Part shown: piece after piece, positions 1,966 to 18,754 of the stretch
How positions within the stretch are numbered: position 1 is the first letter of the stretch
How the letters are laid out: the number at the start of each line of letters is the position of its first letter
Assembly: GCF_006539185.1 (NCBI RefSeq)
Contig: NZ_BJMN01000007.1
Coordinates: 62,001-126,000 of the forward strand
Direction of reading: 5' to 3'
Length of the DNA: 64,000 bases
DNA from: Streptomyces gardneri
GTDB lineage: Bacteria; Actinomycetota; Actinomycetes; Streptomycetales; Streptomycetaceae
Notes under the pieces: generated by a model
Databases searched by the model: none
Told to the model about the DNA's origin: nothing
What the model saw: the letters and a program-made list of their open reading frames with translations, nothing else
Position numbers and translations under genes: made by a program

Positions 1966-2291
1966 CCCCCCACTGCTCCGGGTCCCGCAGGGCGGTCGAA
2001 CCGCCGCGGTCGATGCCGACCCTGGGGACGCGGGCGCTCGTGAGACTCGGAGGGACCGTCAACGGCACTCCGCCCTCCCGCCAGAGGACCTTGCCCAGCC
2101 GGATCGCACGGCGCTTGCCGACCGGCCTGAGCGTGTCAGGGATTCGCATGAAGACGACCGGTGGCCGTCAAGGTCCTGTCAGGGCCCGGCCGCAGGTGTG
2201 GGGACCTGGGCATAGCTTCGAAGCCGTGCCGGATCACGCTCACGCGTACGGCAGGTATCCACCCGTTTCGAGGTTCCTCAAGGAGCGCCTC
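1966..2291. other. Intergenic region, 326 bp, with one direct-repeat operator
   Basis: No convincing gene is seen here. It carries the operator-like direct repeat at 2167-2184 and presumably the promoter of the SAV_915-like gene. Confidence 0.6.
2167..2184 (+). promoter_or_regulatory. Direct-repeat operator A (GTCAAGG-N4-GTCAGGG)
   Basis: Two hexamer-like units, GTCAAGG at 2167 and GTCAGGG at 2178, start exactly 11 bp apart about 110 bp before the next start codon. The same layout recurs before the potassium genes in this window. Candidate binding site for the KdpE-type regulator; this is inference. Confidence 0.55.
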
Positions 2292-2660
2292 ATGTGCCTC
2301 TTCCAGTACGACGACGATCCCGAGCCCGAGGAACCCGGCCCGGCCGGGCTCCTGTACGTCCCGGTCCGGCCGGGAACACACGCGGTGGCGGTCCGCGTCT
2401 TCCGCACGCCGCTGGGCAGCCGTACCGCTGTCGGGTTCACCACCGTGGCGAGGCTGGCCGTCACACTCGGCGCGGAGCAGCCTTGGATCCGGCTCTCGGA
2501 GTCGGTCCTGCGCTCTTTGGCCGAGCCGCTCGGCGCAGAGCTGCTGACCGTCGACCCGACGCTCACCGCCCCCGCGGTCACCAGTCCCGCGGCCTCCGCC
2601 CTGGCGTCGCGGAAGGAGCCGGCTGCCCAGGAGGTCGGTCAGACGGCCCCGACCGCCTGA
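2292..2660 (+). CDS. SAV_915-like small protein
   Basis: This 122-residue protein begins MCLFQYDDDPEPEE and runs into a region rich in VPVRPG, RVFRTPLGSRTAVGFT and WIRLSE. From memory this resembles the SAV_915 family, short soluble Streptomyces proteins distantly related to SseB-like domains whose function is unknown. The last 25 residues are low complexity (Ala/Thr/Ser). The ATG at 2292 is preceded by AAGGAGCG about 5 nt away, which decides the start over longer upstream frames. It is the first gene downstream of operator A, so it may belong to the same regulon as the potassium genes. It ends facing the permease gene and is separated from it by a strong palindrome. Confidence 0.68.
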   Translation: MCLFQYDDDPEPEEPGPAGLLYVPVRPGTHAVAVRVFRTPLGSRTAVGFTTVARLAVTLGAEQPWIRLSESVLRSLAEPLGAELLTVDPTLTAPAVTSPAASALASRKEPAAQEVGQTAPTA

Positions 2661-2690
2661 CCGTGCTGCACTCCGCGCCTCGCCGACTCC

Positions 2691-2712
2691 GCCCCGCCGG
2701 TACCGGCGGGGC
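2691..2712. terminator. Perfect palindrome between convergent genes
   Basis: The arms GCCCCGCCGG and CCGGCGGGGC flank a central TA, forming a 22-nt perfect palindrome between the stops of the two converging genes. It is likely a bidirectional terminator; there is no T-tract, as is common in Streptomyces. Confidence 0.55.
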
Positions 2713-2790
2713 GCGGTAGTGACCTGCACGGTGCGGCCGGACACGTGACGCGGTGGCTTCCGCGATGTGGCTCGCGGGCCGGCTCCGGTG

Positions 2791-16690: not shown

Positions 16691-16705
16691 TGACGCGATC
16701 TTGAC
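16691..16705 (-). promoter_or_regulatory. Direct-repeat operator G before the RCK channel-like gene
   Basis: On the minus strand GTCAAG and GTCAGG units start 11 bp apart (core GTCA at 16705 and 16694). The site is 58 to 72 bp before the GTG at 16763 and inverted relative to that gene, like operator B. Confidence 0.5.
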
Positions 16706-16762
16706 GTCGAACTCTCGTGCGAAGGGAGACGTGGCGGGCTCCGTTCGGCAGGGTTGCCGGAC

Positions 16763-18676
16763 GTGACGTCAACGATCCATCTCCGTATGCCACTTGGGCA
16801 GCGTTCCCAGCACATGGTGATCTGTGGGGACGACGGTCTCGCCCATCGCCTCGCCGTCGAACTCGACGCCGTGTGCGGCGAGGCGGTCACCGTCGTCCTC
16901 CCTTCACGGCGCGACCAGCACGGCGCCGACATCGCCGCCCTGCACCGTGACCCGCACTCTCCGGTCGAACTGATCGTGGCCCCGGGCCCCGACGAGCGGA
17001 CGCTCCGGGCCGCGGGCGTCGAGCGCGCCGCCGCCCTTGCCCTCACCTATGCCGACGACCAGGTGAACATGACGGCCGCGCTCCTCGCCCGCAGTCTCAA
17101 CCCGTCCATACGCCTGGTCATCCGCATGTATCACCGCGAGCGAGGGCGTCACCTGGAGCGGCTCCTGGACCGGGCCGCAGGTGTTCAGGGTGAGTCGGAC
17201 GCCTCGACGACCGTCCTCTCCGACAGCGACACGGCCGTCCCCGAGCTGGTGGCCGCCGCCGTCGGCGAGGGCCACACCCTTCAGGTCGAGGGAAAGGTCT
17301 TCCGCGGCGTGGTGCGCGCGGCCGGAACATCGCCGCACACCGCCGACCTCGCCACGCTCGCCATCCTTTCCGGGGCGCACGAGAACGACCCGGCGAGCGA
17401 GGACAGCGCCGAGACCGCCGGCCTCGGAGGCACCCAGCTGCTGCCCGACACCAGGACCGCGGACCGCCGTCAGTTCACGCACGGCCGTCTCATGCTCGAA
17501 GAGGTCACTCACCACCACGCGCCGAGAGTCCCGGACGACCGGAGCGCCAGCCGTGCCTGGCTGCGCGCACGGCTCTCGCACCTGCCCTGGAAGGTGTTCC
17601 TCGCACGCGAGGTCCTGGCCGTCTTCGGCGTACTCGCCGCGATCGTCGTCGCTCTCTCCGTGGCCACCTGGCTGGTCGAGGACGGCCCCCTGTGGAGAGC
17701 CGTCTATCTGCCGCTCCTGGACATCTTCACCATGGGCGACCCGGCGACAGGGGAGGGCGAGTCGCCGGCACGGCGGATACTCCAGCTCATCGCCGGCTTC
17801 GTGGGGCTCGCCATCCTGCCGCTGGTGGTCGCCGCGACCATGAACGCCACCGAAGCCTTCCGCTCCGGCTCGGCGAACCAGCCACCCGCTCCGGAGATGG
17901 CCGACCACATCGTCCTCGTCGGCCTGGGGAAGATCGGCACCCGCGTCCTGGCCCGCCTGCGGTCCACCGACCACAGGGTCGTCGTCATCGAGCGCGACCC
18001 GGCGGCCCGCGGCGTCGCCTACGCCCGTGAGCTGGGCATTCCTCTCCTCCTTGAGGACGCGACCGCGCCCGGGGTCCTGGAGCAGGCCAGGATCCGGCAC
18101 AGCAAGTCCCTTCTGGTCGTCACGCACGGTGATGGGGAGAACCTGGACCTCGCGATGGCCGCGCGGGAGATCAACCCGGCGATCCGGGTGGTCATGCGCC
18201 TGTACGACGACGATTTCGCCGCCACCGTGTCCGCCACCATGCGTGCCTCGTACCCCGACGCGCTCACCCGCAGCCGCAGCGTCTCCGCCCTCGCCGCTCC
18301 GGCGTTCGCCGCCGCCATGATGGGCCGCCACGTCCTCGGTGTGATGCCGGTCGAGCGGGGATCGCTGCTCTTCACGGCTGTCGACGTGGCCGGACACCCG
18401 GAGCTGGAGGGGCGCTCGGTCCACGAGGCGTTCCGGGAGAACGAATGGCGGGTCCTCGCCGTAGGGGCGGGGAGTGTTCCACCGGCGGCCGCAGGGGACA
18501 CCCTGGCGGGGATTCGATACGACCGGGCCACCGGCTTCGACTGGCGTCCGGTGCACGGCCGTGTGCTGCGCGCGGGTGACCGCGTGGTGCTGGCGACCAG
18601 CCGACAGGGCTTGGACGTACTAATGTCCGGGGTCCAGCCGCACCCGGGGCGCAGACGCGAACGGGCGGGGGAGTGA
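16763..18676 (+). CDS. Dual-RCK (TrkA-N) protein with two-helix channel-like core
   Basis: The 637-residue protein starts with a TrkA-N/RCK nucleotide-binding domain (HMVICGDDGLAHRLAVEL). Then comes a membrane core of two helices (about 285-310 and 345-365 residues in) separated by a loop with LLDIFTMGDPATGEG, and then a second RCK domain (HIVLVGLGKIGTRVLARL, VVVIERDP) and a TrkA-C-like end. The helix-loop-helix between two RCK domains recalls potassium channels gated by RCK rings, but the selectivity filter TVGYGD is degenerate (TMGDP). It probably handles or senses cations; potassium is inferred from neighbours. GTG 16763 is preceded by CAGGG; a TTG at 16754 and ATG at 16787 are alternatives. 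Confidence 0.82.
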   Translation: MTSTIHLRMPLGQRSQHMVICGDDGLAHRLAVELDAVCGEAVTVVLPSRRDQHGADIAALHRDPHSPVELIVAPGPDERTLRAAGVERAAALALTYADDQVNMTAALLARSLNPSIRLVIRMYHRERGRHLERLLDRAAGVQGESDASTTVLSDSDTAVPELVAAAVGEGHTLQVEGKVFRGVVRAAGTSPHTADLATLAILSGAHENDPASEDSAETAGLGGTQLLPDTRTADRRQFTHGRLMLEEVTHHHAPRVPDDRSASRAWLRARLSHLPWKVFLAREVLAVFGVLAAIVVALSVATWLVEDGPLWRAVYLPLLDIFTMGDPATGEGESPARRILQLIAGFVGLAILPLVVAATMNATEAFRSGSANQPPAPEMADHIVLVGLGKIGTRVLARLRSTDHRVVVIERDPAARGVAYARELGIPLLLEDATAPGVLEQARIRHSKSLLVVTHGDGENLDLAMAAREINPAIRVVMRLYDDDFAATVSATMRASYPDALTRSRSVSALAAPAFAAAMMGRHVLGVMPVERGSLLFTAVDVAGHPELEGRSVHEAFRENEWRVLAVGAGSVPPAAAGDTLAGIRYDRATGFDWRPVHGRVLRAGDRVVLATSRQGLDVLMSGVQPHPGRRRERAGE

Positions 18677-18716
18677 CCTGGTTCCGCGTCGCGAGCCAGG
18701 GAGCCGTAGGAGACGC

Positions 18717-18754
18717 GTCAAGACCGCGCTGCGGGACGTAAGAGCGGCGTTAAC
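18717..18754 (+). promoter_or_regulatory. Direct-repeat operator H before kdpFABC
   Basis: GTAAGA (18738) and GTTAAC (18749) start 11 bp apart; a further GTCAAG lies at 18717. The site is about 85 to 120 bp before the first small gene of the kdp operon and is very like operator B1. Confidence 0.5.

What the first reader, a model, noticed from the sequence alone, without database searches (positions are those of the whole stretch)
2167..18754. A shared 11-bp direct-repeat operator in front of nearly all potassium genes: candidate KdpE regulon
Reading the intergenic gaps shows a recurring pair of GTCAAG-like units whose starts are exactly 11 bp apart: 2167/2178, 4811/4822, 4847/4858, 5238/5249, 7207/7218, minus-strand 10692/10681, minus-strand 13184/13173, 13201/13212, minus-strand 16705/16694 and 18738/18749, plus a degenerate one at 14944/14955. 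They precede a SAV_915-like gene, an APC permease, a KimA-like transporter, the DUF4118 module, orphan kdpB, a sensor-like protein, orphan kdpF, an RCK channel-like protein and kdpFABC. Head-to-tail repeats with an 11-bp period are the usual target of OmpR-type regulators, and two KdpE-type regulators flank the cluster. PhoP boxes and AfsQ1 sites in Streptomyces share the 11-bp period, but their consensus (GTTCACC, GTNAC) differs. I know of no description of this motif as a KdpE site.
Basis: partly seen in the sequence, partly recalled or inferred. Interest (0 to 1): 0.87.

Follow-up and report, generated by a model that had tools for sequence, protein, structure and literature searches.

The report
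Shared KdpE operator of potassium genes
A repeated DNA sequence, nearly identical to the site that the potassium regulator KdpE was shown to bind in a mycobacterium, sits in front of many potassium genes in this Streptomyces cluster and of the same kinds of genes in its relatives, so KdpE-type regulators likely switch the set together when potassium is scarce.

Summary
A matrix built only from kdp promoters of 29 other Streptomyces finds 11 sites of 12 bits or more in window bases 1-19000, none in the other 45 kb, and 0.22 on average in shuffles. The unit is often a pair of 11-bp direct repeats 32 bp apart. In the 9.03-Mb genome the paired model has three hits below E 0.1: two kdp operons and kdpE2. 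In 121 Streptomyces genomes it precedes 108 of 118 kdpA matches, 79 of 89 outside training; single sites precede kimA, a predicted KimA-like permease and a small membrane protein.

KdpE is the likely reader: the matrix gives 24.8 of 30.8 bits, in register, to the 22-bp site bound by Mycobacterium smegmatis KdpE. So the motif is not wholly undescribed; new are the paired design, Streptomyces and the wide regulon. In 19 of 20 kdp loci read no full kdpE lies nearby, so stand-alone KdpE homologues likely read it there. Binding and K+ response in Streptomyces are untested. Weak points: sites 2167 and 14944, and reversed orientation at the permease.

The parts
2165..2185 (+). Weak dimer site before a SAV_915-family gene (2292-2660)
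   Evidence: 6.7 bits; stronger sites precede SAV_915 genes on own contig C84 and in G006 (L011 and L144)
4809..4829 (+). Dimer site upstream of the APC/KimA-like permease gene (2791-4746, minus), pointing away from it
   Evidence: 24.7 bits; a site of 12 bits or more upstream of the permease in 22 of 29 relatives
4845..4865 (+). Second dimer site of the same gap, 36 bp on
   Evidence: 24.3 bits; same pair in G004 (L189)
2791..4746 (-). APC-family permease, predicted KimA-like
   Evidence: Named amino acid transporter / APC permease in databases; no Pfam match; AlphaFold model (pLDDT 68) closest to KimA in PDB
5236..5256 (+). Dimer site of kimA, with a degenerate partner at 5268-5288
   Evidence: 12.4 bits; pair score; sites upstream of kimA in 24 of 29 relatives
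5353..7191 (+). kimA homologue
   Evidence: 413.9 bits to B. subtilis KimA 6s3k
7205..7225 (+). Dimer site before the DUF4118 module
   Evidence: 21.4 bits; no 32-bp partner
7381..8157 (+). DUF4118 membrane module like the KdpD sensor
   Evidence: Pfam DUF4118 1.6e-20; KdpD model 2e-10
8625..8677 (-). Paired operator (8657 then 8625 on the minus strand, 32 bp apart) of the small membrane protein gene
8049..8585 (-). Small membrane protein: two predicted TM helices and a PH-like domain
   Evidence: AlphaFold model pLDDT 78.5; PH-like matches only weak, best E 0.022; sites upstream in 24 of 29 relatives
10674..10694 (-). Dimer site 238 bp before an SDR gene (9627-10436, minus)
   Evidence: 16.1 bits; sites about 300 bp before the SDR gene in G038 and G039, none of 15 bits in L163 and L178
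13165..13185 (-). Dimer site about 290 bp before orphan kdpB (10699-12873, minus)
   Evidence: 11.4 bits; kdpB by TIGR01497 996.9 bits
13199..13251 (+). Paired operator (13199/13231) of the GlnX-family gene (13337-14920)
   Evidence: 12.0 and 9.2 bits; GlnX model NF058618 243.8 bits against a cut-off of 250; sites before GlnX in G040 and G068
14942..14994 (+). Paired operator (14942/14974) of orphan kdpF
   Evidence: 5.9 and 16.8 bits; composite; same GTTTCCTC element at the same distance as in kdp
15070..15159 (+). Orphan kdpF, 29 aa, MSVEKVVGLIVAASIVGYLVAALIRPEKF
16687..16707 (-). Dimer site between the MerR gene (minus) and the RCK/TrkA-N gene (plus)
   Evidence: 13.7 bits; target uncertain
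18704..18756 (+). Paired operator (18704/18736) of kdpFABC-kdpED
   Evidence: 23.5 and 21.4 bits; R1 E 1.8e-5 in the whole genome
18839..18922 (+). Conserved 27-aa micropeptide before kdpF
   Evidence: matched in 29 of 30 kdp loci
18919..23484 (+). kdpF, kdpA, kdpB, kdpC
23609..24301 (+). kdpE1, response regulator
   Evidence: KdpE model 242.5 bits
24316..26859 (+). kdpD1, sensor kinase (reading frame open from 24091)
   Evidence: Pfam KdpD 326 bits
20..625 (+). C-terminal part of kdpE2 (whole gene C7:61936-62622); its paired operator lies at C7:61773-61825, outside the window

Best explanation
The 11-bp repeats are likely KdpE operators that would let KdpD/KdpE-type two-component systems switch a potassium regulon together under potassium shortage. 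Shown by sequence: a unit of two head-to-tail hexamers, GTANGG-N5-GTCAAG, often doubled at 32 bp (three helical turns), upstream of kdpFABC, kimA, a permease, orphan kdpF, a GlnX-family gene, a small membrane protein and kdpE2. Inferred: phosphorylated KdpE binds each 17-bp unit as a head-to-tail dimer; two dimers lie on one face of the DNA upstream of a conserved TT-containing, -10-like element without a conserved -35, and recruit RNA polymerase. Also inferred: kdpE and kdpD genes under the same operator give positive feedback; the three KdpE paralogues of this genome (KdpE1, KdpE2, and KdpE3 on contig C11) read one code, because their recognition helices are nearly identical; and where no kdpE lies beside kdp, a stand-alone KdpE does the reading.
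For: Independent matrix concentrates in the first 19 kb. Own genome: three R1 hits below E 0.1, at two kdp operons and kdpE2. Relatives: 108 of 118 kdpA rows, 79 of 89 outside training. Gene-chosen promoters: sites of 12 bits or more in 24, 22 and 24 of 29 (kimA, permease, small membrane protein) after removing kdp-linked sites; 0 of 87 for the same stretches written backwards. Spacing of 32 bp in 22 of 32 site pairs there. Outside the genus 9 of 12 loci read precede kdpA and 2 precede kdpD. M. smegmatis KdpE site: 24.8 bits in register; 0 of 2,000,000 random 21-mers and 0 of 200,000 shuffles reach it. Same 6-5-6 geometry as E. coli KdpE. Contact residues R193, R200, T215 kept in KdpE1, KdpE2, KdpE3 and two KdpE outside the genus. 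The three genomes without a KdpE match have neither kdpA nor an R1 hit.
Against: No binding or expression data in Streptomyces. In 19 of 20 kdp loci read no full kdpE is linked. Five genomes (G021, G026, G030, G107, G119) have a KdpE match but no kdpA and no R1 hit, so the operator tracks kdpA at least as well as KdpE. 10 of 41 hits not at kdpA have no recognised K+ gene beside them (my reading). The permease sites all point away from the gene. Sites 2167 and 14944 are weak; 22093 is a near-threshold hit inside kdpB. The stand-alone kdpDE pair of the own genome has only an 11.5-bit site. M. smegmatis KdpE did not bind its own kdpD promoter, against feedback in that species. Unpublished data cited in PMC10117811: KdpDE is not needed for S. 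venezuelae development or for growth at 0.5 M NaCl or KCl.
Confidence: 0.88

Rival explanations
1. Another OmpR-type regulator, most plausibly MtrA, reads the repeats, and KdpE is only a neighbour.
For: MtrA of Streptomyces uses direct repeats with the same spacer, GtnAcC-N5-GTnAcn (passages of PMC13189361, and PMC5650626); kdpE is not linked to kdp in 19 of 20 loci read.
Against: The fifth base of the second half-site is A in 58 of 58 training sites, where MtrA has C; MtrA words with free Ns reach 8.5-11.7 bits, the KdpE site 24.8; MtrA (2gwr) has N at the place of KdpE R193.
Confidence: 0.05
2. Only kdp, and perhaps kimA, is truly under KdpE; the other sites are copies carried along by duplication or weak chance matches without effect.
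For: Several window sites are weak (2167, 14944, 13231); the paired model finds only kdp and kdpE2 below E 0.1 in this genome.
Against: Sites before the permease and the small membrane protein are kept in 22 and 24 of 29 relatives, 0 backward; model hits beside SAV_915, GlnX and kdpDE genes recur in relatives.
Confidence: 0.12
3. The operator acts as a repressor site, or serves a divergent transcript, at some genes, above all at the permease.
For: At the permease 22 of 22 best sites within 200 bp point away from the gene; at the small membrane protein 21 of 23 and at kimA 12 of 19 point towards it.
Against: M. smegmatis KdpE is described as a positive regulator; a divergent transcript was not looked for; some kimA gaps are shared with divergent genes.
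Confidence: 0.2

Closest known systems
KdpE site of the M. smegmatis kdpFABC promoter (PMC5401905; abstract, passages, section 20 seen)
   Same: CCGTAAAGAAACCATCAAGGCC fits the Streptomyces matrix at 24.8 of 30.8 bits in exact register; lies upstream of kdpFABC; positive regulation
   Different: Reported as one 22-bp A-rich motif, 'direct repeat' absent from the main text; one footprint, no second dimer mentioned in what I read; KdpE did not bind the kdpD promoter; only kdpFABC promoters compared in what I read
KdpE site of E. coli kdpFABC (PMC3264566, passages seen)
   Same: [quoted passage not shown] contact residues R193, R200, T215 conserved
   Different: AT-rich TTTATA/TTTACA (best case -6.1 bits on this matrix); a single site at -72 to -50
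MtrA sites of Streptomyces (PMC13189361, PMC5650626, passages seen)
   Same: Direct repeats of about 6 bp with a 5-bp spacer
   Different: GTnAC core; different targets; N for R193 in MtrA 2gwr
B. subtilis KimA control (PMC10117811 passages; kimA riboswitch recalled)
   Same: KimA is a regulated K+ uptake protein
   Different: There c-di-AMP inactivates the protein (and acts on a riboswitch, recalled); no Rfam family reached its gathering score in this window

Membership tests
[quoted passage not shown]
   geometry of E. coli site
KdpE operator | Lies upstream of kdpFABC | tested here: met
   own kdp operons and 108 of 118 kdpA rows
KdpE operator | Matches a site bound by an actinobacterial KdpE | tested here: met
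   24.8 bits for the M. smegmatis site
KdpE operator | A KdpE with the DNA-contact residues is encoded in the genome | tested here: met
   three KdpE in G000
KdpE operator | Presence of operator and KdpE go together across genomes | tested here: inconclusive
   113 of 121 genomes have an R1 hit and 118 of 121 a KdpE match; the 3 without KdpE lack the hit, but also lack kdpA, and 5 with KdpE lack the hit
KdpE operator | Bound by purified KdpE | not testable with these tools
   needs gel shift or DAP-seq
KdpE operator | Confers response to low potassium | not testable with these tools
   needs RNA-seq or reporters
MtrA site | GTnAC core in both half-sites | tested here: not met
   fifth base of the second half-site is A in 58 of 58
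PhoP box | GTTCACC repeats with 11-bp period (recalled) | tested here: not met
   best-case PhoP word scores -5.4 bits
KimA family (permease 2791-4746) | Sequence similarity to KimA | tested here: not met
   no PDB sequence match at E 0.01 and no Pfam match; only the predicted fold is KimA-like

The most novel reading that the evidence does not exclude
Streptomyces and related Actinomycetia use KdpE not as the switch of one pump but as the master regulator of a whole potassium economy: one paired operator code, two dimers three helical turns apart, is read by interchangeable KdpE paralogues and controls kdpFABC, two classes of KimA-like transporter, orphan Kdp subunits, a KdpD-like membrane module, an uncharacterised PH-like membrane protein family and the kdpDE genes themselves, with a stand-alone KdpDE pair as the ancestral reader.
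Probability: 0.55. Interest if true: 0.68.

Novelty: new variant of a known kind. Interest (0 to 1): 0.58.

Why it matters
A 2023 review states that KdpDE had not been analysed in any Streptomyces model and that none of nine putative K+ transporters of S. venezuelae had been studied experimentally (PMC10117811, passages). A precise operator would make the regulon predictable across genomes, give candidate roles to families without one (the 653-aa permease, the small membrane protein, SAV_915) and supply exact probes for how potassium shortage is answered in antibiotic-producing bacteria. It also suggests that the published 22-bp mycobacterial site is an 11-bp direct repeat.

Tried and rejected
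Strict regular expressions on kdp promoters first seemed to show few sites. The cause was that loci of minus-strand matches come in contig orientation; after turning them the operator was visible in the relatives.

Riboswitch or other RNA control in the window: no Rfam family at gathering score. tRNA near the integrase gene left of the cluster: none in the 20 kb of L012.

The own-genome pattern GTCARSN5GTCARS with up to one mismatch is useless: 600 hits against 472 for the backward control. Ten other own-genome loci gave 7 hits of 12 bits or more in 92 kb, but they had been fetched because they hold the strict word, so they are no fair background.

GlnX as an unbiased footprint: 1 of 60 other genomes searched has a match at E 1e-60, too few to count. 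The fold search of the small membrane protein gave only weak PH-domain matches, best E 0.022.

First counts of gene-chosen promoters had misplaced starts in some loci at contig ends and included sites of neighbouring kdp promoters; one search repeats them with starts taken from tblastn and kdp-linked sites removed, and its numbers are the ones used. The orientation counts are likewise replaced.

The scan of genome contigs with the M. smegmatis 22-mer found nothing. The second scan, with a degenerate paired pattern, also found nothing, but I had written 15 N instead of 14 between the two sites, so it tests nothing.

In one search the pair in kdp promoters was sought at 32 bp; that this spacing is preferred rests on the free offset profile in the same call (best other offsets +32 and -32) and. 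The counts 28, 3 and 10 of the 41 hits not at kdpA are my reading by eye, plus the kdpE2 hit. Lists were capped: one search shows 150 hits, about 150 rows; model searches score only the candidates of a first look. PhoP consensus and the kimA riboswitch are recalled.
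Full report
What was checked. The window lies on contig C7 of a 9.03-Mb genome; the permease's nearest named relatives are from Streptomyces zaomyceticus and S. exfoliatus. 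Main genes from left to right: the end of kdpE2, a methyltransferase, a SAV_915 gene, an APC permease, kimA, a DUF4118 module, a small membrane protein, a GNAT gene, an SDR gene, orphan kdpB, a GlnX-family gene (just under the family cut-off), orphan kdpF, a YnfA-family gene, a MerR gene, an RCK/TrkA-N protein, kdpFABC, kdpE1 and kdpD1. Left of the window stand kdpD2 and a third KdpD-like protein.

Independent matrix. To avoid circularity I took kdp promoters from 29 other Streptomyces (loci L015-L043, the 29 other genomes with the best kdpA matches) and left out the own genome. Sought at 32 bp, each carries a pair: GTANGG-N5-GTCAAG, then GTATGG-N5-GTCAAS; first sites score 10.9-29.4 bits and second sites 19.6-27.8 with the first matrix, and a free profile of offsets in the same call peaks at +32 and -32. 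The 58 sites make the matrix used below. On the window it gives 11 hits of 12 bits or more in bases 1-19000 and none in 19001-64000; 200 first-order Markov shuffles of the 19 kb give 0.22 on average and at most 3.

Whole genome. A sequence-only profile of the paired operator (R1) has three hits below E 0.1 in the whole genome: a second kdp operon on C84 (E 2.7e-7), kdpE2 (6.0e-7) and kdpFABC of the window (1.8e-5). The next, from E 0.16 on, mix weaker sites of the cluster with probable noise (150 of 17,328 first-look candidates were scored).

Relatives. In 121 Streptomyces genomes (own included) R1 hits 113 at E 0.05. Of the 150 listed hits 109 lie 41-366 bp upstream of kdpA on the same strand; 108 of 118 kdpA rows have one. 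Taking away the 29 training loci leaves 79 of 89. The ten misses include all seven divergent kdpA rows of 55-63% identity, a useful contrast, and three of 72-88%. Of the 41 hits not at kdpA I count 28 beside kimA, the permease, the small membrane protein, SAV_915, GlnX, kdpE or kdpD genes, 3 ambiguous and 10 with none of these (by eye). Among the ten, L171 lies beside a Na+/H+ exchanger gene, and L173 and L155 precede a UbiE-type methyltransferase gene.

Promoters chosen by gene, not by motif. I took 29 relatives' loci each for kimA, the permease and the small membrane protein (the best matches for which loci were given). With starts from tblastn and kdp-linked sites removed, a site of 12 bits or more lies within 500 bp upstream in 24, 22 and 24 of 29; the same stretches written backwards give 0 of 87. 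In coding DNA, 500-bp windows gave 0 of 85 (kimA) and 0 of 87 (permease), and whole genes 0 of 29. Of 32 site pairs in these promoters 22 are exactly 32 bp apart; none of the permease loci has its own 32-bp pair. Some gaps are shared by two of these genes, so the loci are not fully independent.

Beyond the genus. In 246 genomes of the class, 59 have a hit at E 0.01, 40 of them outside Streptomyces (of 224 such genomes). Of the 12 outside loci returned, 9 precede kdpA (57-66% identity), 2 precede kdpD and 1 precedes nothing recognised. Loci of the other 28 outside genomes were not given, and some of the weaker hits may be chance.

Who reads it. KdpE of Mycobacterium smegmatis was footprinted, and its site trimmed by gel shift to CCGTAAAGAAACCATCAAGGCC (PMC5401905; abstract, passages and section 20 seen). 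The Streptomyces matrix gives this sequence 24.8 bits of a possible 30.8 in exact register; 0 of 2,000,000 random 21-mers and 0 of 200,000 shuffles of the same letters reach it. E. coli KdpE uses the same 6-5-6 geometry with other letters (PMC3264566, passages). Its contact residues R193, R200 and T215 are present in KdpE1, KdpE2 and KdpE3 and in two KdpE proteins outside the genus; MtrA (2gwr) has N in place of R193. The operator also precedes kdpE2 here and kdpDE pairs in G055, G096, G089, G019 and G097. However, in 19 of 20 kdp loci read no full kdpE lies within about 7 kb of kdpC, though all 20 have the pair; one holds a 46-residue fragment. These 20 were picked mostly because the listed KdpE lies elsewhere, 13 of them are training genomes, and the exception, G023, in fact lists a linked KdpE. 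KdpE matches occur in 118 of 121 genomes. The three without have neither kdpA nor an R1 hit, but five genomes with KdpE and without kdpA also have no hit. I infer that a stand-alone KdpE reads the operator in many species, and that the two flanking KdpE proteins of this window are further paralogues with the same code.

Results that cut the other way. M. smegmatis KdpE did not bind its kdpD promoter, and the authors say M. tuberculosis and M. bovis lack the motif. A review cites unpublished data that KdpDE is not needed for S. venezuelae development or for growth at 0.5 M NaCl or KCl. In S. coelicolor under salt the kdpFABC orthologues were mainly downregulated (PMC13011467, passages). None of these tests potassium shortage in Streptomyces.

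What is new. Searches of the held open-access library for KdpE or KdpDE with Streptomyces, direct repeats, regulons, Mycobacterium ChIP-seq and kdpFABC, and for DAP-seq of Streptomyces regulators, listed no paper that by its title or abstract start describes a KdpE site in Streptomyces; I read passages of six papers, and subscription papers are not covered. The mycobacterial site is published, so this is a new variant of a known kind. New are the paired 32-bp design, the wide regulon and the spread through the class.

Noticed in passing
window 18839-18922; same place in L015-L040, L042, L043: A 27-aa single-helix micropeptide (MADVAFVVTTIAIFALVAFIAKGVAKL) is encoded just before kdpF, overlapping its start; matched in 29 of 30 kdp loci.
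   Followed up: partly
L012:11292-13808 (C7:53292-55808): A third KdpD-like protein with KdpD, Usp and DUF4118 domains but no HATPase match, with a 16.3-bit site upstream and a Usp gene after it.
   Followed up: no
L171 4266-7799: A strong R1 hit (E 9e-8) stands next to a Na+/H+ exchanger gene: a possible further regulon member.
   Followed up: no
L173 4227-4925; L155 4057-4755: R1 hits precede a UbiE-type methyltransferase gene in two genomes.
   Followed up: no
L185 5773-5793 (contig C30): A second kimA copy of the own genome (93% identical) has a 14.0-bit site about 100 bp upstream.
   Followed up: partly
L012:8601-9353: A phage-integrase family gene lies left of the potassium cluster; no tRNA found in L012, so an island origin is open.
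   Followed up: partly
G000 C7:33612, 42591, 42878, 97442: Four similar GTCAGC-N5-GTCAGC words on the same contig, two of them identical, apparently a different repeat.
   Followed up: no
seven divergent kdpA rows, e.g. G075:C8:344632-346290: kdpA copies of 55-63% identity lack the operator in the listed hits and may be under another regulator.
   Followed up: no
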